Assembly: GCF_013364195.1 (NCBI RefSeq)
Contig: NZ_CP054918.1
Span: 3,027,001 to 3,091,000, forward strand
Direction: 5' to 3'
DNA length: 64,000 nt
Source: Streptomyces sp. NA04227
GTDB taxonomy: Bacteria; Actinomycetota; Actinomycetes; Streptomycetales; Streptomycetaceae
A program made the translations under genes and the position numbers. The notes beneath the pieces were generated by a model. It was not told where the DNA came from. It made no database searches and was given only the letters and a program-made list of their open reading frames with translations. This document shows positions 4,751 through 62,512 of the stretch, piece after piece (the stretch's first letter is position 1; each line of letters begins with the position of its first letter).

Positions 4751-4798
4751 TGAGGCGGTGAGTTGGTGCGCTGGCGAGGCGGTGCGTTGGTGAGGTGG
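4751..4798. repeat. Two 24-bp tandem units just after the PHP gene stop
   Basis: Units 4751-4774 and 4775-4798 differ at 4 of 24 positions (yGAGGCGGTGmGTTGGTGmGsTGG), with a partial third copy after them. The array begins 10 bases past the TGA at 4738-4740. Confidence 0.75.
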
Positions 4799-5574
4799 TG
4801 AGTTAGGGGCGGGTCGCGGGAGGGGCGAGAGGCTGCGGGCGGGGTGGTTCCGGGGCCGAGGCGGGGTCGTTCCGATGCGGGGCGGGGTCGTTCCTATACG
4901 GGCAGACGGCGGCCGTCAGCCGCACGCCGCGGATCCGCCGAACTCGCGGCCCCGCCCGGTCCCGTGGCCGCGCAGAGCCGGGTGGCTCCGCCCCTCCGAG
5001 CCCCAACGCCCCGCCTCGCTATCGATTTTCAGCCCCTTTTCCCGCACTGTCACAGTTCGTCGCCGCCGCATGTGCGCCCCGCAGCCAGGCGCTGCGAGGC
5101 GGCGCCCCTCTCTCCGGGACAGTTGGGCCCGCCTCCACCCCTTCTCCTCACCCGCTCTTGGCACCCGCTCCCCGCCGAGCGAACTTGCCCGCGCGAAAAA
5201 TGACTTCACGGACACTTCCTGACGTCGAGTCACGTCACCTCACCCACCCCGGGCCACCAGCCCGTGTCCTGCTGCTTCAGCAACCCCAATCTTGGCGAGT
5301 CCACGACAGGACACTCCCGCTCACGCCGCCCGACACCCAGGCCGCCGACCACGCCCCAACAACCCCGGACTCACGGCCACTTCACCGCGCCTAACCCCAC
5401 CAACCGCACTCCTCCCCCGACGCCCCGTCACCCCCTCGCGCGCCCCGCCTGCGCCCCGCGTGCTTCCGGCCACCTAGGGGGACCTTGTGAGAGCTCACAC
5501 CCGTGGCTGACGGACGCCCACAGGACAAGGCAAACTGACGGGAGCGAACTCACGGGCCCGGCAGGAGGGAAGCA
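4799..5574. other. Long non-coding leader region of afsR
   Basis: 776 bases with no credible gene; open frames here have non-coding codon usage. It holds a twofold GGCGGGGTCGTTCC repeat (about 4860-4893), a lower-GC patch around 5165-5240 and an 18-bp dyad TGACGT-N6-ACGTCA at 5220-5237. The dyad lies about 340 bases before the afsR start, so the afsR transcript probably starts in this region with a long leader. Confidence 0.6.
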
Positions 5575-8839: not shown

Positions 8840-9034
8840 ATGTCCGCACAGAAGAACACCGAAGAGCAGACCATCAAGCCGCTCAACATACATGTCACGG
8901 ACAACACCGACGAGGACGGCGTCAGCCCCGAGGCGAAGGTGCGCCGCCGCAAGGACGGTGCGAAGGACGACCAGGGCGGCGAGACCGACTTCAGCGCGGA
9001 CAACATCCACGTCACCTCGGAGCCGGTCCGCTGA
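8840..9034 (+). CDS. afsS: AfsS-like small regulatory protein
   Basis: A 64-aa hydrophilic protein immediately downstream of afsR. The S. coelicolor AfsS, recalled as 63 aa, is a pleiotropic activator of secondary metabolism in the same position. It has two copies of an NIHVT motif (residues about 17 and 54), with DN beside each, resembling the DNH-type repeats described for AfsS; the middle is charged (VRRRKDGAKDD). GGAG lies seven bases before the ATG, and a strong terminator closes the unit. There is no recognisable enzymatic or DNA-binding domain. The call rests on context, size and the repeat, so orthology is likely but not proven. Confidence 0.75.
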   Translation: MSAQKNTEEQTIKPLNIHVTDNTDEDGVSPEAKVRRRKDGAKDDQGGETDFSADNIHVTSEPVR

Positions 9035-9069
9035 ACCACTTCGCCGAATGAACCACTCCTCCGAAGACC

Positions 9070-15637: not shown

Positions 15638-16417
15638 TCACACGTCCTGCAGTACGGCGAACTCCGCTCCCTGGTTGTCGATGAGTACGGCCATACGTCC
15701 GTAGGGAGCCACGTCGAAGGGATCCGCGGTGACCCGGCCGCCGAGGCGGACGACGGAGGCGGCGGTGGCATCGCAGTCGGCGACGTTGAAGTAGACGAGG
15801 AAGTGGGGCGGCAGTTCGGCGGGGAAGGACGCGTCGACGACGCTCCGGCCGCCGACCGCGGTCTGCGGGCCGGGTTCCTCCCCGGCGGGTGACCACATGC
15901 GGAAGTCGAGGACCTCGTCGGGAGCGTCGGTGGTTCCGTAGCCGAAGACGTCCTCGTAGAAGGGGTCGACCTTGGTCTTGTCGCGGCAGTAGACCTCGGT
16001 CCAGCAGAAGGAGCCGGGGCTCTGTTGGAGCTCGAAACCGGTGTGGGTGCCGCCCTGCCACAAGCCGAACACGGCGCCCTCCGGATCGGCGGCCAGCGCC
16101 ATCGTCCCGAACGGCCCCACGGACAACGGCTCCCGTACGACGCCACCGCCCGCCCCGCGGATCCTGCGGCACAGGGCGACGGCGTCGGGGGTGGCGAAGT
16201 AGACCGTCCACACGGTGGGCATGCGGCCGTCCCGCTTCGGGGCGAGGGCGGCGACGTTGCGGCCGTCGCGGTAGGCCTGCGTGTAGAAGCCGTGCTCGCG
16301 CTCGGCGCCGCCGTCGAAGGTCCACTGGAAGAGTTCGCCGTAGAAGCGCTTGCCTGCCTCCAGGTCGGGCAGCATCGCGTCGACCCAACAGGGGACGCCT
16401 TCGGCGGCTTCGGCCAT
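15638..16417 (-). CDS. Two-domain VOC (glyoxalase-fold) protein
   Basis: 259 aa, two vicinal-oxygen-chelate modules. The first spans about residues 8-125 (PCWVDAMLPDL, FYGELFQWTF, DPEGAVFGLW) and the second about 138-257 (CWTEVYCRD, FYEDVFGYGT, LIDNQGAEFAV). Streptomyces homologues are annotated as putative hydroxylases or antibiotic-binding proteins; neither activity can be shown here. GAAGGA eight bases before the ATG at 16417 supports the start. It is divergent from the TetR gene across 386 bp, so the TetR protein may regulate it. Confidence 0.82.
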   Translation of the reverse strand: MAEAAEGVPCWVDAMLPDLEAGKRFYGELFQWTFDGGAEREHGFYTQAYRDGRNVAALAPKRDGRMPTVWTVYFATPDAVALCRRIRGAGGGVVREPLSVGPFGTMALAADPEGAVFGLWQGGTHTGFELQQSPGSFCWTEVYCRDKTKVDPFYEDVFGYGTTDAPDEVLDFRMWSPAGEEPGPQTAVGGRSVVDASFPAELPPHFLVYFNVADCDATAASVVRLGGRVTADPFDVAPYGRMAVLIDNQGAEFAVLQDV

Positions 16418-16751
16418 GGGCACGGTCCTTCCCGTACGTCTCCACAACGGCCCGGCAGGTCCGGTACGTCTCCGCCCCGGGCGGGCCGGCGTGGAGGAGG
16501 GCTGTGGCACCCGTCACAGGCCAAGCTAGCGCGCGCGATGCGTGCGCGCAGGGCGCAGTCGGGCGGCAGGGTGGGCCGGAGGCGCCGGGGTCCCGGGTGG
16601 GGGCGCAGGGCCGCGGGGTCGCGGCCTCGATGCTGCGGAGCCGGGGACCGCCGGGCCCACGGCGGCGGCACGGCGGCGGTACGCGGTCCGGAAACGGCGC
16701 GCGGCGAGCCGGCCACTGTCCGGGAACGGCGTCCAATGTCGCCTCAACCCC

Positions 16752-16769: not shown

Positions 16770-16803
16770 CGCGCTCCGATCACCCCTCGGTAAGCTGACG
16801 GGC

Positions 16804-17451
16804 ATGACAGGACAGGTAAGAACCGTCGACGGCCGTGTGGCCGGGCGGCGCGGTCAGGCGACGCGCCAGAAGCTGCTCGACTGCCTCGGCGAGATGCTCA
16901 GTTCCTCGCCCTACCGGGATGTCAAAGTCATCGATGTGGCGCGCAAGGCGGGTACCTCGCCGGCGACCTTCTACCAGTATTTCCCGGACGTCGAAGGCGC
17001 CGTACTGGAGATCGCGGAGCGCATCGCCGTGGAGGGAGCGGGGCTCAACTCGCTCGTGGAGGAACGTTCCTGGGCCGGTAAGGGCGGCTGGCAGACCTCG
17101 CAGGATCTGGTCGACGGCTTCCTCGACTTCTGGCGCAGAAACGATGCGATCCTGCGGGTGATCGACCTCGGCGCGGCCGAAGGGGACAAACGGTTCTACA
17201 AGATCCGTATGAAGGTCCTCAACTCCGTGACCCACGCGCTCACGGACGCCGTCTCCGAGCTCCAGTCCAAGGGCAAGGTCGACAAGGACCTCAACCCGGC
17301 GGCGATCGCCGGATCCCTCGTCGTGATGCTGGCGGCGGTTGCCTCGCACCAGAAGGGCTTCCAGACCTGGGGCGTCAAGCAGGCGGAGCTCAAGCCCAAC
17401 CTCGCCACGCTCGTGCACCTCGGCGTTACGGGCAGGAAGCCCACGAAGTAG
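16804..17451 (+). CDS. TetR-family transcriptional regulator
   Basis: 215 aa. The N-terminal TetR helix-turn-helix runs from about residue 15 (RGQATRQKLLDCLGEML) through VKVIDVARKAGTSPATFYQYFPD at 40-62. The rest is an all-helical ligand-binding domain ending in LVHLGVTGRKPTK. The ligand is unknown. The ATG at 16804 was chosen because conservation-like sequence starts there; the frame is open far upstream but non-coding. There is only a weak ribosome-binding site (GGTAAG). A dyad in its promoter suggests autoregulation, and the divergent VOC gene is a possible target. Confidence 0.85.
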   Translation: MTGQVRTVDGRVAGRRGQATRQKLLDCLGEMLSSSPYRDVKVIDVARKAGTSPATFYQYFPDVEGAVLEIAERIAVEGAGLNSLVEERSWAGKGGWQTSQDLVDGFLDFWRRNDAILRVIDLGAAEGDKRFYKIRMKVLNSVTHALTDAVSELQSKGKVDKDLNPAAIAGSLVVMLAAVASHQKGFQTWGVKQAELKPNLATLVHLGVTGRKPTK

Positions 17452-17487
17452 GGCCGCAGCAGCCCACCAAGTAGGGCCACGCAGCAG
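17441..17487. repeat. Duplicated TetR gene 3' end, stop codon included
   Basis: CCACGAAGTAGGGCCGCAG (from 17441) recurs as CCACCAAGTAGGGCCACGC (from 17464), so the last two codons and the TAG stop are present twice, 23 bp apart. The remaining gap, 17488-17800, shows no gene or clear motif. Confidence 0.7.
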
Positions 17488-18663: not shown

Positions 18664-18697
18664 CGAGCCCCGCCGCACCACGAGCCCCGCCGCACCC
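18664..18697. repeat. 17-bp tandem duplication after a stop codon
   Basis: CGAGCCCCGCCGCACCm occurs at 18664-18680 and 18681-18697, starting two bases after the TGA. A CCAACCACCAACC tract follows at about 18709-18730. Confidence 0.7.
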
Positions 18698-21926: not shown

Positions 21927-24416
21927 ATGCTCGGATCGACCCATGGCACCCTCACCACCCATGGCCGCCGCGGCCCGGCGGGCGAGGAGCCCCATCCGGC
22001 GCACACGGGCGAGCGGGGCGCGGACCCGGTACGGGACGACGTGGACGTCAGCGGCCGCCCGCTCCACCTCGGCATACCGGACCTCGACCGCCTGTTCCGC
22101 CCCGACACGGTGACCGTGATCGGCGCGAGCGACACCGACGGCGACCCCGCCACCCCGCTCACGGCCCAACTCTGCACCTGGGCCGAGCGGATCGGGGCAC
22201 GGCTCCATCTGGTGGGTACGCCTCAGGGAAGCCCGTACGGACTGCCTCGCGCCGCGCCGGTCACCGAAGCGGCGGACCTCGCCGTCCTGTTGCACACGGA
22301 TCCGGGACCGCTCTTTGGCCAACTCGCCGAGGCCAAGGTCAAGTTCATCGTCGTGGTGGGCGAAGCACATGCGGCACGGCACGATGCGGCACGCGGCACG
22401 GACACGGCGGCTCAATTCCCGCCCGGCGGCTTCCCGCCCGGCCCCCTGTCGGGTGCACACCGCCGAACGCCCACCACCCCCGGCTTCACCCCCCGCCTGC
22501 TCGGTCCCACTACAGGCCTCGGCACCTTCGAGCCCCTCCGCGACGACCTCACCGGCCCCGCGATCGCCCTGATCACCCGTACCGAGGACGAGGGCCGCCC
22601 ACTGCTCGGCCTACAGCAACTGGGCGTACGGCTCTCGCACTGGGCCGAGACGGGCAGCGGAGCCGGAACCCGTGCCCGGCCCGAGACCGGCGGCGGAGCC
22701 CAGATCGGTGACGGAGCCGGGATCGGCAGAGGGGCCCAATTCGACACAGGGGCTCGGATCGGCACAGGGGCCCAGATCGGTACAGGGGCCCAGATCGGTA
22801 CAGGGACCCAGATCGGTACAGGGACCCAGATCGGTACAGGGACCCAGATCGGTACCGGAGCCGAAACCGCCGCCACGGCAGGGGCCGCAGCGGCGGACCA
22901 CGCCCTGAAACACCCCCTCACCACAGCGGACTTCCTCGCCTACTTCGCCGAGCAGCCCGAAGTCGGCGCCATCGCCTGCTGCCTCGGCCCGCTGCACGAC
23001 GGCCGCGCCTTCCTGCTCGCCGCCGACCACGCGGCCCGCCGCCGTACCCCCGTCGTGGTCATGCGTACGACCACCGAACCGGACCGCGCGCCCACCACCC
23101 TCAACCCGAGCCCCGGCCCCGGCCCCGGCCCCGGCCCAATCTCCACCCCCACCCCCACCAGCACCCCCACCTCCGTACTGGACGCAGCCCTACGCCAATA
23201 CGGCGTAATCCGAGTGGACACCCCCGACCAACTGCAGGACACCGCAGCCCTGTTGGCCCGTGCGCGCCCGCCGCAGGCGGAGGGCGTCGCCGTCCACTCC
23301 CTCTCCCCCGCTGCCGCCGCCCACTTCCGCGCCCTCGCCGCGGAAGCGGGCCTGCGACTCGCCGCTCCACCCGCCCCACCCGCTCCACCCGCCGCCCTCA
23401 ACCCCACCACCCCCGAATCCCTCCTCTCCGACCCGGCGGTGGGCACCCTCGTCTGCCCCCTGCCCACCCCTTCCGCACCCGGAATCGAGGTGTACGTAAG
23501 GGAATTGGCGACCCTGGCGGAGCGGACCGACAAGCTGGTGTGTGTGGTGTGGGGTTCACCTCTCGGCACCGAACCCGCGTACCGCACCACGCTGCTCGGC
23601 TCCGCTCGCGTGGCGACCTTCCGCACGGTCGCCCACTGCCTCACCGCGCTCCGCGCCCACCTGGACCACCACCGCTTCGTCACCCGGTACCGCTCGCCCT
23701 TCGACGAGGCGCCCCGCACCCCCTCCCCCAGCCTGCGCAAGGCGGACGCGCTGATCCGGCCGGGCACCCGGCTGAGCGAGCACGCGGCCAAGCAACTGCT
23801 GCGCGCGTACGGGATCAGGGTGCCGCGCGAGCAGTTGGTGACCAGTGCGGCGGCGGCCGTACGGGCCGCCGCCCAGGTCGGCTACCCGGTGGCCCTGAAG
23901 GCGTCCGGCCCCCGGCTCGCGCACCGTTTCGAACGCGGACTGGTACGGCTCGGGCTGAGCGCGGCCAGCCAAGTACGCGACGCCTACCGGGAGTTGACGG
24001 AGATCGCCCGCTACGAGGGGGTGGCCCTCGACGGGGTGCTGGTCTGCCAGATGGTGGAGCGGGGTGTGGAAATGGCGGTACGGGTGTCCCGTGACGCCGT
24101 GTTCGGTCCGACGGTCTCGCTCCGGCTCGGTGGGGTACTGGCCGAGGCACTACGGGACGAGGCACTCGCGGTACCGCCCTTCGGCGAGGACCGCGCCCGC
24201 GCGATGCTCGGTGAACTGAGCGGCCGCGGCCTGCTCGACGGCGTGCGTAACCTCCCGCCCGCCGACGTCGACGCCCTGGTCGAAGTCGTCCTGCGGGTGC
24301 AGCGGCTCGCCCTCGAACTCGACGGCAGAATCGCCGAGTTGGACGTGGACCCGCTCATGGTGCTGCCCCAGGGCAGCGGCGCGGTCGCCCTCGGCGCGGT
24401 CGCGGTCTGCGATTAG
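21927..24416 (+). CDS. Acyl-CoA synthetase (NDP-forming)-like protein, probably degenerate
   Basis: 829 aa. Order: CoA-binding Rossmann domain (about 55-175, DTVTVIGASDTDGD), a succinyl-CoA-ligase-like region (about 205-590) and a C-terminal ATP-grasp domain (about 605-829, VGYPVALKASGP, AELDVDPLMVLP). Two features are abnormal. Residues 259-312 are nine copies of a hexapeptide (xIGTGx) filling a surface loop. The segment that normally carries the SHTG-type catalytic-His loop is replaced by a Pro/Gly/Thr-rich tract (NPSPGPGPGPGP). Ordinary ADP-forming ligase activity therefore looks doubtful; a regulatory or scaffold role is possible. GGAG lies about 14 bases before the ATG, a long spacing. 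Confidence 0.82.
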   Translation: MLGSTHGTLTTHGRRGPAGEEPHPAHTGERGADPVRDDVDVSGRPLHLGIPDLDRLFRPDTVTVIGASDTDGDPATPLTAQLCTWAERIGARLHLVGTPQGSPYGLPRAAPVTEAADLAVLLHTDPGPLFGQLAEAKVKFIVVVGEAHAARHDAARGTDTAAQFPPGGFPPGPLSGAHRRTPTTPGFTPRLLGPTTGLGTFEPLRDDLTGPAIALITRTEDEGRPLLGLQQLGVRLSHWAETGSGAGTRARPETGGGAQIGDGAGIGRGAQFDTGARIGTGAQIGTGAQIGTGTQIGTGTQIGTGTQIGTGAETAATAGAAAADHALKHPLTTADFLAYFAEQPEVGAIACCLGPLHDGRAFLLAADHAARRRTPVVVMRTTTEPDRAPTTLNPSPGPGPGPGPISTPTPTSTPTSVLDAALRQYGVIRVDTPDQLQDTAALLARARPPQAEGVAVHSLSPAAAAHFRALAAEAGLRLAAPPAPPAPPAALNPTTPESLLSDPAVGTLVCPLPTPSAPGIEVYVRELATLAERTDKLVCVVWGSPLGTEPAYRTTLLGSARVATFRTVAHCLTALRAHLDHHRFVTRYRSPFDEAPRTPSPSLRKADALIRPGTRLSEHAAKQLLRAYGIRVPREQLVTSAAAAVRAAAQVGYPVALKASGPRLAHRFERGLVRLGLSAASQVRDAYRELTEIARYEGVALDGVLVCQMVERGVEMAVRVSRDAVFGPTVSLRLGGVLAEALRDEALAVPPFGEDRARAMLGELSGRGLLDGVRNLPPADVDALVEVVLRVQRLALELDGRIAELDVDPLMVLPQGSGAVALGAVAVCD
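22701..22862 (+). repeat. Nine in-frame 18-bp units (coding minisatellite)
   Basis: Nine contiguous 18-mers of consensus CAGATCGGTACAGGGACC. Units 6-8 (22791-22844) are identical and those upstream are progressively more diverged, suggesting recent expansion toward the 3' side. They encode QIGDGA, GIGRGA, QFDTGA, RIGTGA, QIGTGA, QIGTGT three times and QIGTGA. Confidence 0.95.
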
Positions 24417-24486
24417 CACGCGGTCACGGTCCGCGAATTGCACGCGGTCGCGGTCCGCGAATTGCACGCAGTCGCAGTCCTGCGAA
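24395..24486. repeat. 24-bp tandem array containing a stop codon
   Basis: Almost four units of CGCGGTCGCGGTCCGCGAAT plus TGCA, from 24395. The first unit is coding and contains the TAG stop (GATTAGCA where the others read GAATTGCA). The array occupies most of the gap to the convergent MFS gene. Confidence 0.85.
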
Positions 24487-26939: not shown

Positions 26940-27006
26940 GCCGAGCGCGAAGGAGGGCAGCACCCGGACCCTCGAAGTCCCCGCATCCTCAAGCCACCCC
27001 GAACTC

Positions 27007-27492
27007 TCAAGCCACCCCGAACGCGAACCCGCCGAACCCCGTACGCGTACCGGCCGCGGTGCGCTGCGGCGCGGCGCTCGGGCCGCCGCAGCGGTCGATC
27101 TCGCACCAGATCCGCTTACCGCTGCCCTCGCGCTGCCAGCCCCAGCGGTCGGCGAGGCCCTCGACTAGTTCCAGGCCGCGGCCGCCGGTCTCCTCGTCGT
27201 CCGCCCGGCGCGGACAGGGCGGCAGGGTGCTGCGGTCGTCGACCTCCACCCGGACCGTGCCGTCGGGGCCGAGGACGGCGGGGTGCGGGATGCGCAGGCG
27301 CAGTACGGCCGGACAGCCGGTGTGCACCACGGCGTTCGTGACGAGTTCGGAGACCAGCAGCACCAGGGTCTGGGCCACGTGCTCCTCGGCGTCCATCCCC
27401 GAGCCCGCCAGTCGCGCGCGTACCCATCTGCGCGCCCGCCCCACTTCCGCGGGATCGGCCCCGACCTCCAGCTGCACCTGAAGCTCCTGCAC
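27007..27492 (-). CDS. SpoIIAB/RsbW-like ATP-binding regulator
   Basis: 161 aa with a GHKL ATPase domain of the HATPase_c_2 type: N-box LLVSELVTNAVVH, G1-like VRVEVDDRS and the G2 region GRGLELVEGLADRWG. There is no histidine-kinase phospho-acceptor domain. Streptomyces has dozens of these; some act as anti-sigma factors or kinases of STAS proteins, and a STAS gene lies 1.3 kb away on the same strand. A direct link is inference. It starts at GTG 27492 with a weak ribosome-binding site. Confidence 0.8.
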   Translation of the reverse strand: MQELQVQLEVGADPAEVGRARRWVRARLAGSGMDAEEHVAQTLVLLVSELVTNAVVHTGCPAVLRLRIPHPAVLGPDGTVRVEVDDRSTLPPCPRRADDEETGGRGLELVEGLADRWGWQREGSGKRIWCEIDRCGGPSAAPQRTAAGTRTGFGGFAFGVA

Positions 27493-28013
27493 CGCTCACA
27501 CCATCCGAACCGGCGGACACGTCGCCTCGCGTCTCCATGGGGTCACGGAACGTGATCCCCTCCAGAGACAGCATGGTTGACGTACAGTCACCTCAACAAG
27601 CGCTTCGGGCATATTCCCGCGCGAAGGAGTAGGCGTACTGCATACTGTGCGACGCCCGCCGCGAAGAGTCGAACACGAGCCGCCTCGACCACCGGCGCAC
27701 GCCCCGGAGCCCGTCATCACCGGGCGCGCCAGGCACGAGCCGCTCCCCCGGGAAGCCGGATCGGCAACTCCCGGGCGGCTGGGGCCGGACACCACTCGCA
27801 TCTGAGACAAGGTACCCGAGCCGGGCGCCGACTCCATGCCGTAACGAGTCACGCATGGGACACAAACCCGCATCGCCACCCGCGAGGAGCGCACCGCTCA
27901 CCCTGAGTGACCTTCTGCGGTACGGGTGTTGGGGCAGGGGGTTGAGGCAGGGAGGGTGAGGCAGGGCCGAGACAGAAGTCGGGGCGGACGGAAGGCCCGC
28001 GCGCCCCAACTCC
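27493..28013. other. Gene-free 520-bp stretch
   Basis: No frame on either strand has coding-like composition. It contains a small dyad TCACG-GAA-CGTGA at 27543-27555, about 50 bases upstream of the ATP-binding gene, a comparatively AT-rich patch 27570-27650, and a GAGGCAGGG-type repeat at about 27940-27965. Confidence 0.5.
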
Positions 28014-28092
28014 GGTGATCCCCGACTGCGGTGATCCCCGACTCGGTTGATTCCCGACTCGGTTGATTCCCGACTCGGTTGATTCCCGCCCG
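28014..28092. repeat. Five 15-16-bp units abutting the EF-hand gene stop
   Basis: Units of GGTTGATTCCCGACTC: two early GGTGATCCCCGACT variants and three near-identical late copies. The array ends seven bases from the stop codon (28099-28101) of the leftward EF-hand gene, so it occupies the start of its 3' untranslated region. Confidence 0.9.
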
Positions 28093-31915: not shown

Positions 31916-31977
31916 CAGCTGGGACGAGCCACTAGGGAAGACCCCTAGCAGCTGGGACGAGCCGCTAGGGGAAGACC
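31916..31977. repeat. 33-bp direct repeat duplicating the purU 3' end, with hairpin
   Basis: CAGCTGGGACGAGCC plus rCTAGGG starts at 31916 and again at 31949. The second copy contains the purU stop (31965-31967). Between the copies CTAGGG (31932-31937) pairs with CCCTAG (31943-31948) around five bases, a likely terminator for the convergent genes. Confidence 0.85.
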
Positions 31978-33626: not shown

Positions 33627-34934
33627 ATGACCGAAAGGCGCCGCACGCGTACCTTGCCCCTGCCTCCCCAGAGAACCCTCCGCCGTTCCGCGAACGGCAA
33701 ACGGGCCCGCAAAGCGGGGACGCTGGCGCTCTGTTCGGCGATGCTGCTCTCCGGCTGCTCCCTGCTCGGCGACTCCTCCGAGAAGGCCCCGATCACGGTG
33801 ATGACCTGGGCGCCCGACCATACCAAGGCGGCCAACAAGCCCGGCATGACGGCCATGGCGCAGGCGTACGCGCGCTGGGTCAACGCCGAGGGCGGCATCG
33901 ACGGCCGCAAACTCGAAGTCCTTGTCTGCAACGACCACGACGATCCGGTGGGTGCGGCGGCCTGCGCCCGGCGGGCGGTGAGCAACAACGTGACGGCGGT
34001 GGTCGGTTCGTACAGCCAGCACGGACGTTCCTTCCTCGCCCCGCTCGAATCGGGAGGAATCCCCTACATCGGCGGATACGGCATCACCGAGGCCGAGTTC
34101 ACCAGCCCGCTCTCGTATCCGGTGAACGGCGGCCAGCCCGCCGCGATGGCCGGGATCGGCAAGGAACTCTCCTCACGCTGCGACCGGGTTGCCCTCGTTC
34201 GCCCCGATACGGTCACCGGTGACGACCTTCCGGTCCTGTTCAACTCGGGCCTGGCGGGGGCGCGGATCCGAGCGGGCGACATCGCCGCCCCGGAGGACGC
34301 CACCGAATACACGAGCTCCGCGGACCGGGCGCTGGATCACGCCACCGCGGATCCCGCGGCACGCGGCTGTGTGACGGCCGCCCTCGGCGAGCGCACGGAC
34401 ACCTTCTTCGACTCCTTCCGGCGCACCGAGGAGGCCTACCCCGGGGTCAAGACAGCCTCCGTGCTCGGCAGCGTGGACCAGTCGCTCATCGACCGCACGG
34501 GCGGCGCCTCCGGCCCGTACGAGGGCGCCTACGTCGCCGGGTGGTACCCGGTGGCCTCCGACCCGCGCTGGAACGGTATGCGCGAGGTGATCAACGAGCA
34601 CGCCTTCGGCGACAACCGGATCGACCCCGCCGACGCGGGCGTACAGACCACCTGGATCGCCTTCACCGTGCTGCGCCGCGCGATCGAGGCCCTCGGCGAC
34701 GGCGACGTCAGCGCCCAGGCCGTACGCCGCACCCTGGACAGCGGCCTCAAGGTCGACACCGGCGGCCTCACCCCCAAACTGAGCTGGCGCTTCGAGGACA
34801 TGATCGCGGTCCGCGACTTCCCGCGCCTGGTCAACGCGAACGTCACCTTCCAGGTGGTACGCGACGGCCGCCTGGTCTCGGCTCGCCGCGGCTTCGTCAA
34901 CATGAGCAAGACGTTGGAGCGGAGTACGGACTGA
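33627..34934 (+). CDS. Lipoprotein, type 1 periplasmic-binding fold
   Basis: 435 aa. An unusually long basic n-region (RRRTRTLPLPPQRTLRR) precedes a hydrophobic segment and lipobox LLSGC with Cys44. The mature part is a Leu/Ile/Val-binding-protein fold (ITVMTWAPDHTKAANKPGM, VNAEGGIDGRKLEVLVCNDHDDP, ACARRAVSNNVTAVVGSYSQHG, VDQSLIDRTGG, YVAGWYPVA). No ABC permease or ATPase genes adjoin, so it may be an orphan receptor or sensor. The start is ATG 33627; GTG 33621 is possible. Confidence 0.85.
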   Translation: MTERRRTRTLPLPPQRTLRRSANGKRARKAGTLALCSAMLLSGCSLLGDSSEKAPITVMTWAPDHTKAANKPGMTAMAQAYARWVNAEGGIDGRKLEVLVCNDHDDPVGAAACARRAVSNNVTAVVGSYSQHGRSFLAPLESGGIPYIGGYGITEAEFTSPLSYPVNGGQPAAMAGIGKELSSRCDRVALVRPDTVTGDDLPVLFNSGLAGARIRAGDIAAPEDATEYTSSADRALDHATADPAARGCVTAALGERTDTFFDSFRRTEEAYPGVKTASVLGSVDQSLIDRTGGASGPYEGAYVAGWYPVASDPRWNGMREVINEHAFGDNRIDPADAGVQTTWIAFTVLRRAIEALGDGDVSAQAVRRTLDSGLKVDTGGLTPKLSWRFEDMIAVRDFPRLVNANVTFQVVRDGRLVSARRGFVNMSKTLERSTD

Positions 34935-34960
34935 GGGGGACGGGCTGAGGGGGACGGGCT
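34931..34960. repeat. 14-bp tandem units carrying repeated stop codons
   Basis: CTGAGGGGGACGGG at 34931-34944 and 34945-34958, then CTGAGAAG. The gene's own TGA (34932-34934) is in unit 1, and copies recur 14 and 28 bases later. Confidence 0.8.
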
Positions 34961-35010
34961 GAGAAGTACCCGGGGGGTACGGGCCGAGCGGCGGGGTGCA
35001 GGCTCGGGTC

Positions 35011-35718
35011 ATGGCGTCCGCGACAGAAAACTCCGTCCCGTCACACTCGGTCCCGTCACACCCGGTCCCGTCCAACTCGGTCCCGTCCGCGGCCGAACGC
35101 TTCGTCGTGATCACCGGCGGGCCCGGGGCCGGGAAGAGCACCTTGATCGACCGGCTGCAGGAGGCGGGCTTCGCGCGCTCCCAGGAGGCGGGCAGGGGCG
35201 TCATTCAGGACCAGACGGCCGTCGGGGGACGCGCGCTGCCGTGGACAGACCCCGATTTGTTCGCCGAGTTGATGCTCTGCTGGGAGCTGCGTTCCTACCG
35301 CGATCTGGCGGCCCACGCGGCGCGGTCCGTCTCGCCGGGCTCGGCTGCTTCGGCTGCTTCTGCGGGCCCGGATTCCCCTTCGCCAGGCCCGGTCTTCTTC
35401 GACCGCGGCATCCCCGACATCGTCGGCTACCTCCGCCTCGAAAACCGGCCGGTCCCCGCCCACATCGACACGGCGGCCCGTGAATTCCGGTACCACCGGC
35501 GGGTGTTCATCGCCCCGCCCTGGCCGGAGATCTACCGGCGGGACGCCGAGCGGCGGCAGTCCCTCGCGGATGCGGAGCGGACCTACGCGTCCATGGTCAC
35601 GACCTACACCGAGTACGGCTACGAACTGGTGCGGCTCCCCCGGGTCTCCGTGGCGGAGCGCGTCCGGTTCGTGACCGAGCACTTGAGCGGACCGCTACCG
35701 GTCGTCGCCAACCGGTAG
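35011..35718 (+). CDS. P-loop AAA-family ATPase/kinase-like protein
   Basis: 235 aa. An N-terminal repeat (VPSHSVPSHPVPSNSVPS, from 15-bp DNA repeats) precedes a P-loop GGPGAGKST. FFDRGIPDIVGYL acts as the Walker-B/LID-type region, and FIAPPWPEIYRRDAERRQS resembles the arginine-bearing segment of the AAA_28 group. These are predicted NTPases or small-molecule kinases of unknown substrate. A GSAASAASAGPDSPSPGP insert interrupts the middle. ATG 35011 has no clear ribosome-binding site; GTG 34996 is in frame upstream. It is convergent with the next gene, with only 27 bp between them. Confidence 0.8.
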   Translation: MASATENSVPSHSVPSHPVPSNSVPSAAERFVVITGGPGAGKSTLIDRLQEAGFARSQEAGRGVIQDQTAVGGRALPWTDPDLFAELMLCWELRSYRDLAAHAARSVSPGSAASAASAGPDSPSPGPVFFDRGIPDIVGYLRLENRPVPAHIDTAAREFRYHRRVFIAPPWPEIYRRDAERRQSLADAERTYASMVTTYTEYGYELVRLPRVSVAERVRFVTEHLSGPLPVVANR

Positions 35719-35745
35719 TCGCCGACCGGTGGTGGCCACCGCCAC
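35704..35745. repeat. Three 14-bp units spanning a stop codon
   Basis: GTCGCCAACCGGTA (35704-35717), GTCGCCGACCGGTG (35718-35731) and the degenerate GTGGCCACCGCCAC (35732-35745). The TAG stop at 35716-35718 straddles the first junction. The array fills the whole gap to the convergent gene. Confidence 0.8.
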
Positions 35746-41651: not shown

Positions 41652-41731
41652 TGCAGTCACCGGTGGAAGACGCGGCTCGCCGACAGAAGATGCGGCTCAC
41701 CGATGGAGGAAGCGGCTCACCGATAGAAGAT
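41652..41731. repeat. Four 20-bp units made from the SIS gene 3' end
   Basis: Consensus GCGGCTCACCGATAGAAGAT. Units start at 41652 (degenerate), 41672, 41692 and 41712. The last unit carries the final codons and the stop (41717-41719) of the leftward SIS gene, so its 3' end is reiterated three times downstream. Confidence 0.88.
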
Positions 41732-42604
41732 CCGGTCCCCGTACTCCTCGAACACCCGCCGGTTCCACTCCGTACCGCCGTCGACGTTGCCGGACCTGAG
41801 CAGGGGCACGTCCGCGCCCCGGCGGGCGAGTTCCCCGGCGGTGGCGGCGAGGACGGCCTGCAGCAGTGCGCTGGTGACCGGTGTGGAGACCGGCGCGAAC
41901 GGCGCGTCGATGCCTTCGGCCGTCAACTGGGCGTCGCCCACCGGGACATGGGTGTCCAGGACCAGGTCGCAGTGGTCGGCGAGGCGGGTGCCCGAGGGGT
42001 GGCAGGGCTCGGTGGCCGCGACATAGGCGAGCGAGGTGACACCGATGGTGCGCAGGCCCTTCTCGCGCGCCCGGATCGCCATCTCCACCGGCAGCACATT
42101 GCGGCCCGACAGGGAGATCAGCAGGAGCAAGTCCCCTTCCGCGGCAGGGGAGTTGTCGAGTACGGCGGTGGCCAGGCCCGCCACGCGTTCCAGTGCCGAG
42201 CCGAGGGTGGCGGGCGCCTCGACCCCTGCGGCGCCCGGGACCTGGAGCAGGTTCACCAGCGCGAGCCCGCCCGCGCGGTAGACGAGGTCCTGGGCGAGGA
42301 GCGCGGAGTGCCCGGCGCCGAAGGCGAACAGCCGCCCGCCGCCGATGACCGTGTCGGCGAGCAGACCGGCCGCCGCGGCGGCGACCTCGGACTGCTCCTC
42401 GCGCACCCGGGCCAGCAGCGCGAGGGTGGCGTCGAGATACTCCCGCGCGAGACCGGTCCCGGGCGACGGCGCACGCCCCGCCCCCGCCCGCACTTCCGCC
42501 GCCCCTTCCCACGCCTCCCGCGAGCCGTCCGGGCCGTGCGCGCCCCGCTCCCCCGCCGCACCCTGCTCCCCCTGCGCCCCGCTCACCCGCGTACCGCCTT
42601 CCAT
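41717..42604 (-). CDS. SIS-domain sugar-phosphate-binding protein
   Basis: 295 aa. A disordered N-terminus of about 50 residues is followed by a SIS domain (about 55-290): ADTVIGGGRLFAFGAGHS, LLLISLSGRNVLPVEMA with the Ser-rich phosphosugar loop, and GLRTIGVTSLAYV. The family includes MurNAc-6-phosphate etherases, glucosamine-phosphate isomerases and regulators; this one resembles the stand-alone SIS proteins found beside dmdR1 in Streptomyces. Substrate unknown. The start is ATG 42604; internal GTG starts are possible. Confidence 0.82.
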   Translation of the reverse strand: MEGGTRVSGAQGEQGAAGERGAHGPDGSREAWEGAAEVRAGAGRAPSPGTGLAREYLDATLALLARVREEQSEVAAAAAGLLADTVIGGGRLFAFGAGHSALLAQDLVYRAGGLALVNLLQVPGAAGVEAPATLGSALERVAGLATAVLDNSPAAEGDLLLLISLSGRNVLPVEMAIRAREKGLRTIGVTSLAYVAATEPCHPSGTRLADHCDLVLDTHVPVGDAQLTAEGIDAPFAPVSTPVTSALLQAVLAATAGELARRGADVPLLRSGNVDGGTEWNRRVFEEYGDRIFYR

Positions 42605-43940: not shown

Positions 43941-44903
43941 ATGGCACGGCACATGGAGGTGACCGGCAGCGGCGGTGTCCGGCTCGCCGCGCGGGAGTTC
44001 ACCGGCACCCGCGAGCCCGCCGGGACGGCCGAGGCGGCCGGTCCCCTGCCGGGAGTGTTATTGCTGCACGGCCTGATGGGCTGCGCCGCGCACTGGGAGT
44101 CCACGGCCGACTGGCTGGCGCCCCGGTTCCGTACGGTCGCCCTCGACCAGCGCGGTCACGGCCGCAGCGAGAAACCCGCCACCGGGCCCTGGACCCGGGA
44201 GGCCTACGTCGCCGACGCCGAGGCGGCCGTTGAACAACTGGGGCTCGGGCCCGCCGTACTGATCGGCCACTCGATGGGCGCGCTGACCGCCTGGCAGCTC
44301 GCGGCCCGGCGGCCCGATCTGGTGCGGGCCCTGGTCATCTGCGACATGCGCGCCTCCGCGCTCGGGGCGGCCAGCCAGCGGGCCTGGGAGGACTGGTTCG
44401 GGAGCTGGCCGCTGCCGTTCGCCTCGCTCGACGCGGTGCGCCGCTGGTTCGGCGCGGACGATCCGCGCCTGGAGCGGCCCGACCCGAGCCGCGGCGCGTT
44501 CTACGCGAGGGTGATGCGGCAGACCGGGGACGGCTGGCGCCCGGTCTTCGAGCCCCGGCAGATGCTCAGCTCGCGCGAACGGTGGGTCTACGACGCCCAC
44601 TGGGACGACCTCGCCGCGGTGCGCTGCCCGACGCTGGTGGTTCGCGGCCTGGACGGCGAACTCGGCCGCGCCGAGGCGCAGGAGATGGTGAGGGTACTGC
44701 CGCACGGCGCCTACGCCGAGGTCCCCGAGGCCGGACACCTCGTCCACCACGACCGGCCCGAGGACTGGCGGGCCGTGGTGGAACCCTTCCTCGAAGGGGC
44801 GCTCCGCCCCAAGGACGACCCCGCCCAGACGACGGCCCGGGCCACCCCCGTAGTACCGCCGCAGTCCCAACTCCCCTCGCGGATCGAGCCGTTCAGGGAC
44901 TGA
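43941..44903 (+). CDS. Alpha/beta-fold hydrolase
   Basis: 320 aa. It has an HGLMG oxyanion motif (LLLHGLMGCAAHW), nucleophile elbow GHSMG with Ser111, and the C-terminal His of EAGHLVHHDRPE. The acid is likely the Asp in RGLDGELG. This is the standard AB-hydrolase_1 pattern; substrate unknown. The start may be ATG 43941 or 43953, with GAGGGGGT upstream at long spacing. The last ~30 residues are a Pro/Ser-rich tail ending inside a tandem repeat shared with convergent pdxH. A LexA-like box upstream suggests DNA-damage control, by inference. Confidence 0.85.
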   Translation: MARHMEVTGSGGVRLAAREFTGTREPAGTAEAAGPLPGVLLLHGLMGCAAHWESTADWLAPRFRTVALDQRGHGRSEKPATGPWTREAYVADAEAAVEQLGLGPAVLIGHSMGALTAWQLAARRPDLVRALVICDMRASALGAASQRAWEDWFGSWPLPFASLDAVRRWFGADDPRLERPDPSRGAFYARVMRQTGDGWRPVFEPRQMLSSRERWVYDAHWDDLAAVRCPTLVVRGLDGELGRAEAQEMVRVLPHGAYAEVPEAGHLVHHDRPEDWRAVVEPFLEGALRPKDDPAQTTARATPVVPPQSQLPSRIEPFRD

Positions 44904-44961
44904 GCCCGTTCAGAGACCGAGCCATTCAGAGATCGAGCGTTCAGGGACTGAGCCGCTCCAC
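44885..44961. repeat. Five ~16-bp units holding the stop codons of both convergent genes
   Basis: Units of yGAGCCGTTCAGrGAC start at 44885, 44901, 44918, 44934 and 44949, with lengths of 15-17. The hydrolase TGA (44901-44903) opens unit 2 and the pdxH stop (44941-44943) is in unit 4. Confidence 0.88.
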
Positions 44962-45663: not shown

Positions 45664-45731
45664 GCGGTCATCCTGCCGCATACGGACGGAGGTTCGCCTC
45701 CGCCGCCGGAACGGGACAAAAGCTGCCGCGT

Positions 45732-48353: not shown

Positions 48354-48415
48354 GTGGTCTTCCCTTCCGTGTGTGCGGCCCGCCCCGCGGGCACGGTCTG
48401 CTCGCCGGGTGTGGC

Positions 48416-50047
<1,632 letters not shown>

Positions 50048-51318: not shown

Positions 51319-51341
51319 GGGGTGTCCTCCACGGTCTTGTT

Positions 51342-51452
51342 GTCGTGCGCGGTGGTGTCAGTCACGTGCGGTGTCGTCGTGCGCGGTGCTGTCGTCGTGC
51401 CCGGTGCTGTCGGTCACGCGTCCTGCGCGGTGTCGTCCTGCGCGGTGGCGTC
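51342..51452. repeat. ~18-bp array spanning the carboxylase-alpha stop codon
   Basis: Units of GTCGTGCGCGGTGCTGTC at 51342, 51376, 51394 and 51435 with diverged copies between them. The stop (51414-51416) lies inside, and the last coding units give the repetitive ATAQDDTAQDA tail. Confidence 0.8.
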
Positions 51453-53525
51453 GCTGCTGACCACCGCCAGTACGGCGCCGACCTCGACCTGGTGGCCGAC
51501 GGCGGCGGGCAGGGCGGTGAGCGTTCCGGAGGCGGGAGCGGCGATGCGGTGCTCCATCTTCATCGCCTCCAGCCAGACCAGCGGGTCCCCGGCTTCGACC
51601 CGGTCGCCCACCGCGAGCCCCTCGGCGAGGCGGATGACGGTGCCGGGCATCGGGGCGAGCAGGGAGCCGGGCGCGCGCTGCTCGCTCGGGTCGGGGAAGC
51701 GGGGCAGCGCGGTCAGGGTGTACGCGCCCTCCGCGGTGTCGACGTGGACCCGGCTCCCGTACCGGCCGACGGTGAACCGCCGCCGCACGCCGTCGACTTC
51801 GAGCACCACCGAGCCGGGCGCCGCCTCGCTCACCCGTACGCCGGGCAGGTCCACGGGTTCCAGGCCCTCGCGCAGCGCCCGGTAGCGGACCTCGATCTCG
51901 CCGCCGGGTCCGGCGTAGCGCCGGGACTGCGACTGTGAGGGCAGGTTGCGCCAGCCGCCGAAGGTGCGAGTGCCGGGCTGGACGCCGCCGGGGCGGCCCG
52001 CGTCGTTGGCGGCGGGAGCGCTCGCGGTGCGTTCGGCGCTGTCGGCGAGGGCGGCGGCGAGCGCGGCGACGGCCACCGCACGCTCCTCCAACTCCCCTGC
52101 CGAATCGGTGAGTTCGGTGGCGTGGCGCTCGTAGAAGCCGGTGTCGAGTCCGGTCAGGAGCAGGCCGCCGGGGGCGCCCGCGTCCGGGGTGCCGGTGAAC
52201 TCGGGGTGCCGCAGGGAGCGCACGAGCAGGTCGCGGTTGGTGACCGGGCCGTGCAGTACGGCGCGTCGCAGGGTGCCCGCGAGGGTGCGTACCGCTTCGG
52301 CGCGGGTCGGCGCCCAGGCGATGACCTTGGCGAGCATGGCGTCGTAGTGCACACCGACGGTGTCGCCGCTGGCGTAACCGGCGTCCAGACGTACCGAGTT
52401 GGGGGTCGTGCCGAGTTCGAAGCGGTGCAGGGTGCCGGTCTGCGGCAGCCAGCCCTGTGCGGGGTCCTCGGCGTACAGGCGGGCCTCCACGGCGTGGCCG
52501 CGCGGCGCGGGCGGCTCGGTGTCGAGCGCGCCGCCCTCGGCGATCCGCAGTTGCAGGGCGACCAGGTCGAGGCCGAACACGGCCTCGGTGACGGGGTGTT
52601 CGACCTGGAGGCGGGTGTTCATCTCCAGGAAGTACGCCTGCTCGCCGCGGACCAGGAACTCCACGGTCCCGGCGCCGGTGTAGCCGATGGCGCGGGCCGC
52701 CGCGACGGCCGCCGCGTGCAACTCCTCGCGCAGCGCCCGGCTCAGGCCGGGCGCCGGGGCCTCCTCGATGACCTTCTGGTGGCGGCGCTGGAGCGAGCAG
52801 TCGCGGGTGCCGAGCGCCCAGACGGTGCCGTGCGCATCGGCGAGCACCTGCACCTCGACGTGCCGCCCGCGCTCCAGGTACGGCTCGACGAACACCTCAC
52901 CGTCCCCGAAGGCGCTCGCGGCCTCCGCCCGCGCCGCCTCCAACTCCTGTGGCAGGTCGGCTAGTTGGCGTACGACGCGCATACCGCGTCCGCCGCCGCC
53001 CGCAGCCGCCTTCACCAGTACCGGCAGATCGGCCTCGGTGACGGCGGCCGGATCCAGCGGGGCGAGCAGCGGAACCCCGGCGGCGGCCATGAGCTCCTTG
53101 GCGCGGGTCTTGGACGCCATCGACTCGATCGCCTCGGGCGGCGGACCGATCCACAGCAGTCCGGCGCCCTGCACCGCGCGGGCGAACTCGGCGTTCTCGG
53201 ACAGGAATCCGTACCCCGGGTGGACCGCGTCCGCGCCCGCGGCCTGGGCCGCCTTCACCAGCAGCTCGCCGCGCAGATAGGTCTCGGCGGGCGTGTTGCC
53301 GGGCAGCCGTACCGCCGACTCGGCCTGCCGGGTGTGCAGGGCCCGCTCGTCCGCGTCCGAGTGCACGGCCACGGTGGCGATGCCGAGCTCGCGGCAGGTG
53401 CGGAAGATACGGCAGGCGATCTCGCCGCGGTTGGCGACCAGGACGGAGCCGATCTCGCGAACTTCCGCCGGACGCGCGGCAGTCGGCCGCATGGGCTGCG
53501 TCGTCTGCGTGATCTCGTTGCTCAT
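51414..53525 (-). CDS. Acyl-CoA carboxylase alpha subunit (biotin carboxylase + BCCP)
   Basis: 703 aa. Biotin carboxylase N-domain (SVLVANRGEIACRIFRTCRELG), ATP-grasp with the Gly-rich loop KAAAGGGGRGMRVV, HQKVIEEAPAPGL and EMNTRLQVEHPVTE, then a linker and C-terminal biotinyl domain with EAMKMEH (Lys656). This is the fused alpha architecture of methylcrotonyl-, geranyl- and propionyl-CoA carboxylases. GAGGCGG precedes ATG 53525. It lies eight bases downstream of the beta-subunit gene. Partner specificity: the beta subunit decides the substrate, and operon context favours a branched enoyl-CoA. Confidence 0.93.
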   Translation of the reverse strand: MSNEITQTTQPMRPTAARPAEVREIGSVLVANRGEIACRIFRTCRELGIATVAVHSDADERALHTRQAESAVRLPGNTPAETYLRGELLVKAAQAAGADAVHPGYGFLSENAEFARAVQGAGLLWIGPPPEAIESMASKTRAKELMAAAGVPLLAPLDPAAVTEADLPVLVKAAAGGGGRGMRVVRQLADLPQELEAARAEAASAFGDGEVFVEPYLERGRHVEVQVLADAHGTVWALGTRDCSLQRRHQKVIEEAPAPGLSRALREELHAAAVAAARAIGYTGAGTVEFLVRGEQAYFLEMNTRLQVEHPVTEAVFGLDLVALQLRIAEGGALDTEPPAPRGHAVEARLYAEDPAQGWLPQTGTLHRFELGTTPNSVRLDAGYASGDTVGVHYDAMLAKVIAWAPTRAEAVRTLAGTLRRAVLHGPVTNRDLLVRSLRHPEFTGTPDAGAPGGLLLTGLDTGFYERHATELTDSAGELEERAVAVAALAAALADSAERTASAPAANDAGRPGGVQPGTRTFGGWRNLPSQSQSRRYAGPGGEIEVRYRALREGLEPVDLPGVRVSEAAPGSVVLEVDGVRRRFTVGRYGSRVHVDTAEGAYTLTALPRFPDPSEQRAPGSLLAPMPGTVIRLAEGLAVGDRVEAGDPLVWLEAMKMEHRIAAPASGTLTALPAAVGHQVEVGAVLAVVSSDATAQDDTAQDA

Positions 53526-61656: not shown

Positions 61657-62466
61657 GTGGGCTGGTTGAGCGGGGTGGTCGTCCACCTGCCGGGTGCCGG
61701 AGCCGGGCAGGCCGGAGACACCGGACAGACCGGGCAGGCCGGACAGACGCTGCGGCTGGGGCCGGGCGAGGCGGTCCGTTTCGGCCGGGGTTCGGCGACG
61801 GTGCCGGTCGAGCTGCGACTCGACGACGAGGCGGTGTCCCGGCTGGCCGGGGAGATCCGCGCCACCGACGACCACTGGCAGCTGAGCAACTACAGCGCCA
61901 CGCACAGCTATCTGGTCGAGAACCCGGAGGGCGCCGGGGAGTACCTGCGCGTGCCGCCGCGGCGCACCGGTGCCCCCATCCCCTTCGAGTTCTCCCGCGT
62001 GGTGCTGCCCGCGCGCGGCGGCACCGTCTCCTTCCAGGTGTTCGCGCCCGATCACGTCTACCTCGACGCGGACGCCGTCGCCGGACCCTTCGGCGGGCGC
62101 ACCGTCGCCGCGTACTCGCTCGACGAGACCGCCACGTACTTCCTGGTACTGCTCGCCCTGTGCGAACCCCGGCTGCGGGACGTCTCGCCGATGGCCGTAC
62201 CGACCACCCCGCAGGTCGTCGAGCGGTTGCGCGGGCACCCGGCCTGCGCCCGGCTCACCGCCCGCGCGGTCAGCTCCCACATCGACTACCTCGCCGACGA
62301 GAAGATGCGCCTGAGCCCGCCCGCCGGGGACGCCGAGAGCCGCGCGGGCCGCCGCACCGGCAAGCGGGAATCTCTCGTCGGCGTCGCCCTGCGGTTCGGT
62401 CTGGTCCGCGAGGAACACCTGGCGCTGCTCCCGCCGCGGCCCCGCGGCGCGGAGGGCGGCCGGTGA
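61657..62466 (+). CDS. FHA-like domain protein with C-terminal helix-turn-helix-like region
   Basis: 269 aa from GTG 61657 (AGGGG upstream). The N-terminal ~120 residues look like a divergent forkhead-associated domain (VRFGRGSATVPVELRL, VSRLAGEIRATDDHWQLSNYS, SYLVEN). The second half is alpha-helical (YFLVLLALCEPRLRD, VVERLRG, AVSSHIDYLADEKMRL), resembling a winged helix. FHA domains bind phosphothreonine, and the next gene is a Ser/Thr kinase, so it is probably that kinase's partner. The GQAGDTGQTGQAGQT stretch is a coding repeat. Confidence 0.7.
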   Translation: MGWLSGVVVHLPGAGAGQAGDTGQTGQAGQTLRLGPGEAVRFGRGSATVPVELRLDDEAVSRLAGEIRATDDHWQLSNYSATHSYLVENPEGAGEYLRVPPRRTGAPIPFEFSRVVLPARGGTVSFQVFAPDHVYLDADAVAGPFGGRTVAAYSLDETATYFLVLLALCEPRLRDVSPMAVPTTPQVVERLRGHPACARLTARAVSSHIDYLADEKMRLSPPAGDAESRAGRRTGKRESLVGVALRFGLVREEHLALLPPRPRGAEGGR

Positions 62467-62512
62467 GACGCGGAGGGTGGCCGGTGAGACGGGGAGGCGC
62501 CGGTGGGCGCGG
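62450..62512. repeat. 21-bp tandem units spanning a stop and forming the next gene's start
   Basis: CGGAGGGyGGCCGGTGAGAC plus G at 62450-62470 and 62471-62491. Unit 1 contains the FHA gene stop (62464-62466). A degenerate third copy supplies the GGGAGG ribosome-binding site and GTG start of the kinase gene. Confidence 0.8.

What the first reader, a model, noticed from the sequence alone, without database searches (positions are those of the whole stretch)
4751..62512. Short tandem duplications recur at or across stop codons of unrelated genes
At least thirteen gene ends lie in or directly beside a 14-33-bp tandem duplication: 4751, 17441, 18664, 24395, 28014, 31916, 34931, 35704, 41652, 44885, 48398, 51342 and 62450. 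Both strands and unrelated families are involved. In ten of them the stop codon itself is inside a unit. Periods vary (14, 16, 17, 18, 20, 21, 23, 24, 33) and unit sequences are unrelated, so this is not one dispersed repeat family. It suggests a mechanism that duplicates DNA near gene 3' ends (slippage at terminator structures, end-joining, or transcription-replication collision), or relaxed selection that lets such duplications persist there.
Basis: partly seen in the sequence, partly recalled or inferred. Interest (0 to 1): 0.72.

Follow-up and report, generated by a model that had tools for sequence, protein, structure and literature searches.

The report
Tandem repeats at bacterial gene ends
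Short stretches of DNA have been copied head-to-tail at the ends of many genes in this soil bacterium and several relatives, most likely because copying slips in many places but slips just past a stop signal are harmless enough to survive.

Summary
Tandem Repeats Finder finds arrays at 12 of the 13 places; the 13th (31916) is readable by eye. The window lies in a 7.9-Mb Streptomyces-like chromosome. Arrays touch -3..+30 of 103 of 671 stops but 33 of 676 starts there, 61/338 v 14/342 in Streptomyces sp. SCUT-3, and 39/314 v 5/308 in 20 loci of other named Streptomyces. They are not chance (72 perfect duplications in 137 kb of intergenic DNA, 0 in a Markov resample).

Best reading: microhomology-mediated slippage makes 10-40-bp duplications along the chromosome, and selection removes most of those inside genes or near starts. 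Arrays begin abruptly within about 20 bp of the stop, the stop lies in the first unit in 33 of 39 (16.9 expected), and coding duplications keep frame (44 of 45). Species carry unrelated arrays at the same gene end. Terminator hairpins and head-on collisions are not supported. A moderate extra peak 20-60 bp after stops and unequal species rates remain unexplained. The kind is known (stop-overlapping VNTRs in Yersinia pestis); its extent in Streptomyces did not appear in my literature listings.

The parts
4749..4802 (+). degenerate array, period 8, starting 9 bp after the stop (4738-4740) of gene 3211-4740; a second array (period 21) follows at 4837-4902
9032..9065 (+).
17438..17487 (+). 23-bp x 2.1 array containing the TAG stop (17449-17451) of gene 16837-17451 (TetR_C_38 match on the longer frame 15889-17451)
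18664..18696 (+). 17-bp x 1.9 array, 3 bp after the stop of gene 17801-18661 (PNPOx matches on the longer frame 17339-18661)
24395..24486 (+). 24-bp x 3.8 array, stop (24414-24416) of gene 21927-24416 (ATP-grasp) in the first unit
26988..27022 (-).
28004..28088 (-). 16-bp x 5.3 array, ending 11 bp from the stop (28099-28101) of the EF-hand gene 28099-28611 (-)
31916..31977 (-). 33-bp duplication between the convergent genes 30455-31897 (+) and 31965-32870 (-); the minus-strand stop (31965-31967) lies in the gene-side unit
   Evidence: read directly; not listed by TRF
34926..34963 (+). 14-bp x 2.7 array containing the stop (34932-34934) of gene 33741-34934 (Peripla_BP_6)
35697..35738 (+). 14-bp x 3.0 array containing the stop (35716-35718) of gene 35011-35718 (AAA_28); also within 30 bp of the stop of 35746-37818 (-)
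41657..41735 (-). 20-bp x 4.0 (or 40-bp x 2.0) array carrying the last codons and stop of the SIS-domain gene 41717-42586 (-); orthologous gaps in other species carry unrelated arrays
44885..44955 (.). 16/33-bp array spanning both stops of the convergent alpha/beta-hydrolase gene (43941-44903 +) and pdxH-like PNPOx gene (44941-45681 -); the unit resembles the last codons plus stop of the latter
48388..48474 (-). 18/36-bp array crossing the stop (48416-48418) of the AMP-binding gene 48416-50047 (-), and reaching 50 bp or more into its end
51338..51453 (-). two overlapping arrays (51338-51412 period 18; 51368-51453 period 15, 65% matches) at the end of gene 51414-53525 (-), stop 51414-51416
62448..62512 (+). 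21-bp x 3.2 array with the stop (62464-62466) of gene 61657-62466 in the first unit; it also reaches the called start of the kinase gene 62503-63999

Best explanation
The arrays are unrelated small minisatellites that arise in place. Shown: they are real, far beyond chance, commoner at stops than at starts in several genomes, different from species to species at the same gene end, and their junctions carry short direct repeats. Inferred: replication slippage (or another microhomology-mediated step) between short direct repeats of a few bases, plentiful in 72% GC DNA, duplicates 10-40-bp segments along the chromosome; existing arrays then grow and shrink by further slippage. Selection sorts the products. 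Inside a gene only in-frame, tolerable duplications remain; just upstream of a gene a duplication would disturb promoter or ribosome-binding spacing. A tandem duplication that contains or follows a stop codon leaves the original last codons and the first stop intact, so the protein is unchanged and the array can persist and decay. This makes gene 3' ends, above all gaps between convergent genes, the main reservoir. No function for the arrays is proposed.
For: Stops against starts: 103/671 v 33/676 home genome, 61/338 v 14/342 SCUT-3, 22/141 v 6/138 in G013, 39/314 v 5/308 in 20 named Streptomyces loci without SCUT-3 (p 6e-8). Array fraction of convergent, same-strand and divergent gaps: 0.135/0.083/0.056 home, 0.186/0.077/0.035 SCUT-3, 0.238/0.062/0.015 in the 20 named loci. 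In same-strand gaps of 100 bp or more density falls from 0.156 next to the stop to 0.015 next to the start (home) and 0.123 to 0.005 (SCUT-3). In home convergent gaps density stays at 0.11-0.26 out to 200 bp from the nearest stop. Inner edges of home arrays rise from 0.2-1.2 per kb at 20-120 bp inside the gene to 3.3-3.6 per kb within 20 bp of the stop. Of arrays crossing a stop, the stop is in the first unit in 33 of 39 (16.9 expected, home) and 10 of 12 (5.0 expected, SCUT-3). Period divisible by 3: 44 of 45 perfect coding duplications against 27 of 72 intergenic (home); stop-overlapping arrays 14 of 44 (home). Two-copy perfect intergenic duplications with 3 or more extra matching bases at the junction: 28 of 38 home, 14 of 22 SCUT-3, against about 8% expected for blunt random duplication. 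Beyond the last 15 bp, N-terminal and C-terminal ends inside genes carry similar array densities, as tolerance predicts. One orthologous convergent gap has an array at the SIS-gene stop in 10 of 20 species with an orthologue, with best-scoring periods in the gap from 10 to 61; pdxH-like ends have one in 11 of 46 loci. Loci L095/L111 (94% identical) differ by a 55-bp insertion of 18-bp period 3 bp from a stop.
Against: At 150 bp or more from any start, density still peaks 20-60 bp after stops and is lower beyond 200 bp (0.168 v 0.066 home without window, bootstrap intervals just overlapping; 0.217 v 0.026 SCUT-3; 0.257 v 0.058 named loci; 0.121 v 0.029 nine other genomes), more than flat tolerance predicts unless long gaps hold hidden constraint. 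SCUT-3 has an inner-edge excess at 0-20 bp (8.7 and 7.0 per kb) and a peak inside convergent gaps. TRF arrays called intergenic have periods divisible by 3 in 93 of 196 (home) and 46 of 104 (SCUT-3), more than a third, and perfect ones in 15 of 21 of the G009/12/5/15 pool, so some may be uncalled or former coding DNA. The stop/start contrast is not significant alone in G004, G005, G007, G009, G012, G019, G023, G026 or G033, and convergent gaps are not the richest class in G005, G007, G012 or G019. Species rates differ without a cause found. 7 of 38 home intergenic two-copy duplications show no junction microhomology. Of 33 listed length differences between L095 and L111 only 3 look like tandem duplications, one each at a stop, 33 bp from a start, and in frame in a gene. 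No strain-level or mutation-accumulation data were available.
Confidence: 0.7

Rival explanations
1. Mutational hot spot: the first 20-60 bp after genes duplicate more often (paused or terminating RNA polymerase, R-loops, exposed single strands), and selection only adds to it.
For: The density peak 20-60 bp after stops remains at 150 bp or more from any start, and a 1.5- to 2.4-fold excess within 80 bp of stops remains after GC matching, in four data sets; inner-edge peak at 0-20 bp in SCUT-3.
Against: Home convergent gaps show no comparable decline with distance out to 200 bp; beyond the last 15 bp C-terminal ends inside genes have no more arrays than N-terminal ends; head-on and co-directional genes do not differ.
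Confidence: 0.16
2. Slippage at, or repeated growth of, intrinsic terminator hairpins.
For: The peak distance (20-60 bp) is where terminators usually lie (general knowledge). In SCUT-3 flanks with arrays have a lower median z (-0.73 v -0.37) and energy per base (-0.535 v -0.479) than flanks without.
Against: In the home genome the order is the reverse (median z -0.48 with v -0.52 without; energy per base -0.362 v -0.414); mean z and the fraction with z below -2 are weaker with arrays in both genomes (0.16 v 0.20 and 0.15 v 0.23) (83 and 61 flanks with arrays, 90 sampled without in each).
Confidence: 0.05
3. Selected function: arrays at stops act in termination, mRNA 3' stability, insulation of convergent transcription or as back-up stops.
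For: Arrays recur at the same orthologous gene ends; many units carry a stop codon.
Against: Units, periods and presence are not conserved between species; most stops have none; stop-overlapping home periods show no frame preference (14/16/14 mod 3); base composition of home arrays is close to that of other 3' flanks (SCUT-3 arrays are richer in G+C).
Confidence: 0.06
4. Chance or gene-calling artefact in low-complexity GC-rich DNA.
For: Genes were called with my own codon-score caller, so starts are approximate and some small genes are missed; GC-rich DNA has many short repeats.
Against: A Markov resample gives 0 perfect duplications against 72, and a TRF array fraction of 0.0005 against 0.085; the stop/start contrast recurs in independent genomes; stops are fixed once the frame is known.
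Confidence: 0.03

Closest known systems
Stop-overlapping VNTRs of Yersinia pestis (PMC3689786; passages read)
   Same: Short tandem repeats with unrelated units; ten overlap stop codons and six overlap starts; the authors note that copy-number change at stops might affect the ORF less and that VNTRs near 5' ends may be under stronger purifying selection; in-ORF units divisible by three.
   Different: A set of 88 typing loci in one species; here about 10-18% of gene ends in the array-rich Streptomyces sampled, with unrelated arrays at orthologous ends and a measured stop/start profile.
Tandem repeat regions of archaeal Borg elements (PMC9879509; passages read)
   Same: Unrelated units, independent recent origin, intergenic or beginning in the end of an ORF, in-frame inside ORFs, partial repeats at the flanks.
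   Different: Borg repeats are perfect, A-enriched, analysed at three or more units and about half within ORFs; these are GC-rich, often degenerate and biased to gene 3' ends.
Mycobacterial MIRU-VNTR and the rnc-fpg1 repeats (PMC2734929; abstract and passages read)
   Same: Actinobacterial intergenic tandem repeats present in one species group and absent from the same gap in others.
   Different: MIRUs are 40-100-bp units dispersed at 41 places (that they form one sequence family is recalled); the fpg1 repeats lie upstream of a gene and are linked to its expression; here units are unrelated and 3'-biased.
Surveys of prokaryotic satellites and STRs (PMC6749651, PMC12699852; passages read)
   Same: Many satellites are unique and vary by species (S. 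coelicolor is listed with 38); weak STR enrichment upstream and downstream of bacterial genes is reported.
   Different: The passages I saw do not examine stop codons in Streptomyces or minisatellite-sized units relative to stops; I did not read these papers whole.

Membership tests
Minisatellite / VNTR locus | head-to-tail copies of a 10-60-bp unit beyond chance | tested here: met
Minisatellite / VNTR locus | copy number varies between strains of one species | not testable with these tools
   one genome per species held; between L095 and L111, 94% identical, one stop-side array differs
MIRU-type dispersed repeat family | one unit sequence family at many loci | tested here: not met
   consensus units at the listed loci are unrelated (by inspection)
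Intrinsic terminator | hairpin more stable than in other 3' flanks and shuffles | tested here: not met
   SCUT-3 medians lean the other way, fractions below z -2 do not
Replication-slippage product | short direct repeats (microhomology) at duplication junctions | tested here: met
   28 of 38 (home) and 14 of 22 (SCUT-3) intergenic two-copy duplications with 3 bp or more
Replication-slippage product | rate depends on replication or repair factors | not testable with these tools
   NucS in 11 of 11 and Ku in 18 of 18 genomes searched; presence alone does not separate rich from poor genomes

The most novel reading that the evidence does not exclude
Some Streptomyces lineages have a raised rate of short tandem duplication focused on the first tens of bases after genes, so that 3' flanks are continually remodelled by lineage-specific minisatellites; transcription termination or the DNA state left behind it would be the trigger.
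Probability: 0.15. Interest if true: 0.62.

Novelty: new member of a known kind. Interest (0 to 1): 0.4.

Why it matters
It gives a quantitative picture of where short duplications survive in a GC-rich bacterial genome: 3' ends and convergent gaps act as a nearly free reservoir, while starts are kept clean. The same orthologous gap can be compared over many Streptomyces species as a natural duplication assay, and the difference between species makes it possible to look for the factor that sets the rate. Practically, such arrays might serve as strain-typing markers for Streptomyces, and they caution against reading repeats after stops as regulatory elements.

Tried and rejected
Terminator slippage: flanks with arrays are not clearly more structured. 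Replication-transcription collision: no head-on excess (home: convergent 24/124 co-directional v 18/124 head-on, other 36/234 v 25/189; SCUT-3: 13/50 v 9/50 and 29/169 v 10/69). NHEJ or NucS loss: neither separates array-rich from array-poor genomes by presence. Back-up-stop selection: no frame preference. One dispersed repeat family: units unrelated. Length differences in the pairs L101/L102 and L099/L102 were scattered by the alignment and the output was cut; I use only the L095/L111 pair. Ten literature searches were answered, one with no papers; for several only the top rows were listed.

Rows dropped and limits: L012 was left out of pooled home counts from then on because it overlaps L056 and L057 (include it). 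Gaps under 15-30 bp were left out of gap tables. L110 is SCUT-3 itself, so one search gives the named loci without it (39/314 v 5/308) and also without L104 and L111, which are near twins of other rows (37/293 v 5/286). L099 and L196 match at 100% and L174/L180 at 95%, so the 46 pdxH and 47 citrate-synthase rows are not all independent; the array threshold there was score 45, elsewhere 50.

Full report
What was checked. The window is G000:C1:3027001-3091000 of a single 7,894,562-base contig, 72.3% GC. I take it for a Streptomyces: all 21 genome-contig loci that encode a relative of window protein 43941-44903 come from records titled Streptomyces, at 62-76% identity. With genes called by codon score, 16 of 43 stops and 5 of 45 starts in the window have an array (TRF score 50 or more, period 10 or more) touching -3..+30.

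Beyond the window. I used 39 non-overlapping 20-kb stretches of the home genome besides the window (a 40th dropped for overlap) and 20 of Streptomyces sp. SCUT-3. Stops against starts: 103/671 v 33/676 with the window, 87/628 v 28/631 without, 61/338 v 14/342 in SCUT-3. Other genomes: G013 22/141 v 6/138, G015 11/132 v 3/134, G010 9/67 v 1/66 (each p below 0.05); G009 6/157 v 1/164, G005 8/120 v 2/124 (p 0.06); G012 6/151 v 4/150, G007 2/73 v 1/76, G004 10/68 v 6/69, G019 6/51 v 3/49, G023 4/15 v 2/14 (p 0.3 or more); two genomes of another family 3/25 v 0/25 and 0/28 v 0/29. Twenty-one named Streptomyces loci gave 50/332 v 5/325; without the SCUT-3 locus 39/314 v 5/308, and without two near-twin rows as well 37/293 v 5/286. 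E. coli K-12, 150 kb with deposited annotation, gave 0/131 v 0/131. Stop rates differ between 11 Streptomyces genomes (chi-square 46.6, 10 d.f., p 1e-6). By perfect duplications per 10 kb of intergenic DNA the spread is smaller: 5.3 home, 4.9 SCUT-3, 7.1 G013, 3.4 for G009/12/5/15 pooled.

Chance. Perfect duplications of two or more full copies (period 10-100) in intergenic DNA against one Markov-1 resample each: home 72 v 0, SCUT-3 32 v 1, G009/12/5/15 21 v 1, G013 8 v 0.

Shape of the signal. Density climbs from about 0.01-0.04 inside the gene to 0.15 (home) and 0.21 (SCUT-3) at 30-60 bp after the stop, and is 0.013 and 0.006 in the 15 bp before starts. In same-strand gaps of 100 bp or more it falls from stop to start. 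Inner edges of arrays jump at about -20 bp. Where an array crosses a stop, that stop is usually in the first unit (33/39 and 10/12): the duplicated tail lies beyond the original stop. Inside genes perfect duplications keep the frame (44/45 home, 36/38 SCUT-3); outside they do so in 27/72 and 11/32. Against this, TRF arrays called intergenic have periods divisible by 3 more often than a third (93/196 and 46/104) and perfect ones in the G009/12/5/15 pool in 15 of 21, so some of that DNA may be uncalled or former coding sequence. On the whole this is the pattern of a general duplication process filtered by selection.

What tolerance alone does not cover. At least 150 bp from any start, density still peaks 20-60 bp after a stop and is lower beyond 200 bp in four data sets, and GC matching leaves a 1.5- to 2.4-fold excess within 80 bp of a stop. 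In home convergent gaps the distance profile is nearly flat to 200 bp; in SCUT-3 it peaks at 20-80 bp. In four smaller samples (G005, G007, G012, G019) convergent gaps are not the richest class. Hidden constraint in long gaps or a mild hot spot would both fit. Array frequency at stops falls away from the origin in the home genome (69/346, 23/177, 9/101, 2/47 per Mb step) but not in SCUT-3 (21/116, 20/95, 20/127) (origin placed by dnaA).

How they arise. Two-copy perfect intergenic duplications of period 12 or more carry 3 or more further matching bases in 28 of 38 (home) and 14 of 22 (SCUT-3), where about 8% would be expected for blunt random duplication. That points to slippage or another microhomology-mediated step. 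Orthologous gaps show arrays that differ between species: the SIS-domain gene stop has one in 10 of 20 species with an orthologue, and the best-scoring arrays of those ten gaps have periods 18, 20, 42, 20, 12, 10, 23, 36, 19 and 61. The pdxH-like end has one in 11 of 46 loci including the window, and by eye in at least four (window, L095, L110, L199) the unit resembles the gene's own last codons and stop; the citrate-synthase end has one in 8 of 47. Other gene ends in the same region have few or none. L095 and L111, 94% identical over 18.6 kb, differ by a 55-bp insertion of 18-bp period 3 bp from a stop; it is one of 33 listed length differences, of which 3 look like tandem duplications.

What was not found. 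Arrays are not consistently hairpin-rich, not biased to head-on genes, and NucS (11 of 11) and Ku (18 of 18, G041 counted once) are present whether a genome is array-rich or array-poor.

Known ground. Passages of a Y. pestis VNTR study report ten stop-overlapping and six start-overlapping VNTRs and give much the same tolerance argument (PMC3689786). Borg tandem repeats (PMC9879509), mycobacterial rnc-fpg1 repeats (PMC2734929), a prokaryotic satellite survey (PMC6749651) and an STR survey (PMC12699852) are related; all were seen as abstract or passages, not whole. Ten searches of an open-licence library listed no paper on stop-codon arrays in Streptomyces among the rows shown; most subscription journals are not in it.

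Verdict. A true, widespread and mostly explained pattern: slippage in many places, survival after stops. Its extent in Streptomyces, its recurrence at the same gene ends and its species differences are the useful part.

Noticed in passing
window 22698-22855: 18-bp x 8.8 array inside the ATP-grasp gene 21927-24416; a coding repeat with a period divisible by three, not a gene-end one.
   Followed up: no
window 37137-37552: Large 18/36/81-bp arrays inside gene 35746-37818 (-), for which Pfam gave no family at E 1e-5.
   Followed up: no
L110 (Streptomyces sp. SCUT-3): 12 of 19 stops in one 20.9-kb stretch have arrays and 0 of 18 starts (11 of 18 and 0 of 17 with retrained scores), above the rest of that genome (61/338).
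   Followed up: partly
home genome, by distance from dnaA: Stop arrays thin out from the origin to the arms (69/346 to 2/47); SCUT-3 shows no such gradient.
   Followed up: partly
L097, gap next to the SIS-domain gene: A long run of a CAGCAC-like 6-bp repeat fills much of the convergent gap.
   Followed up: no
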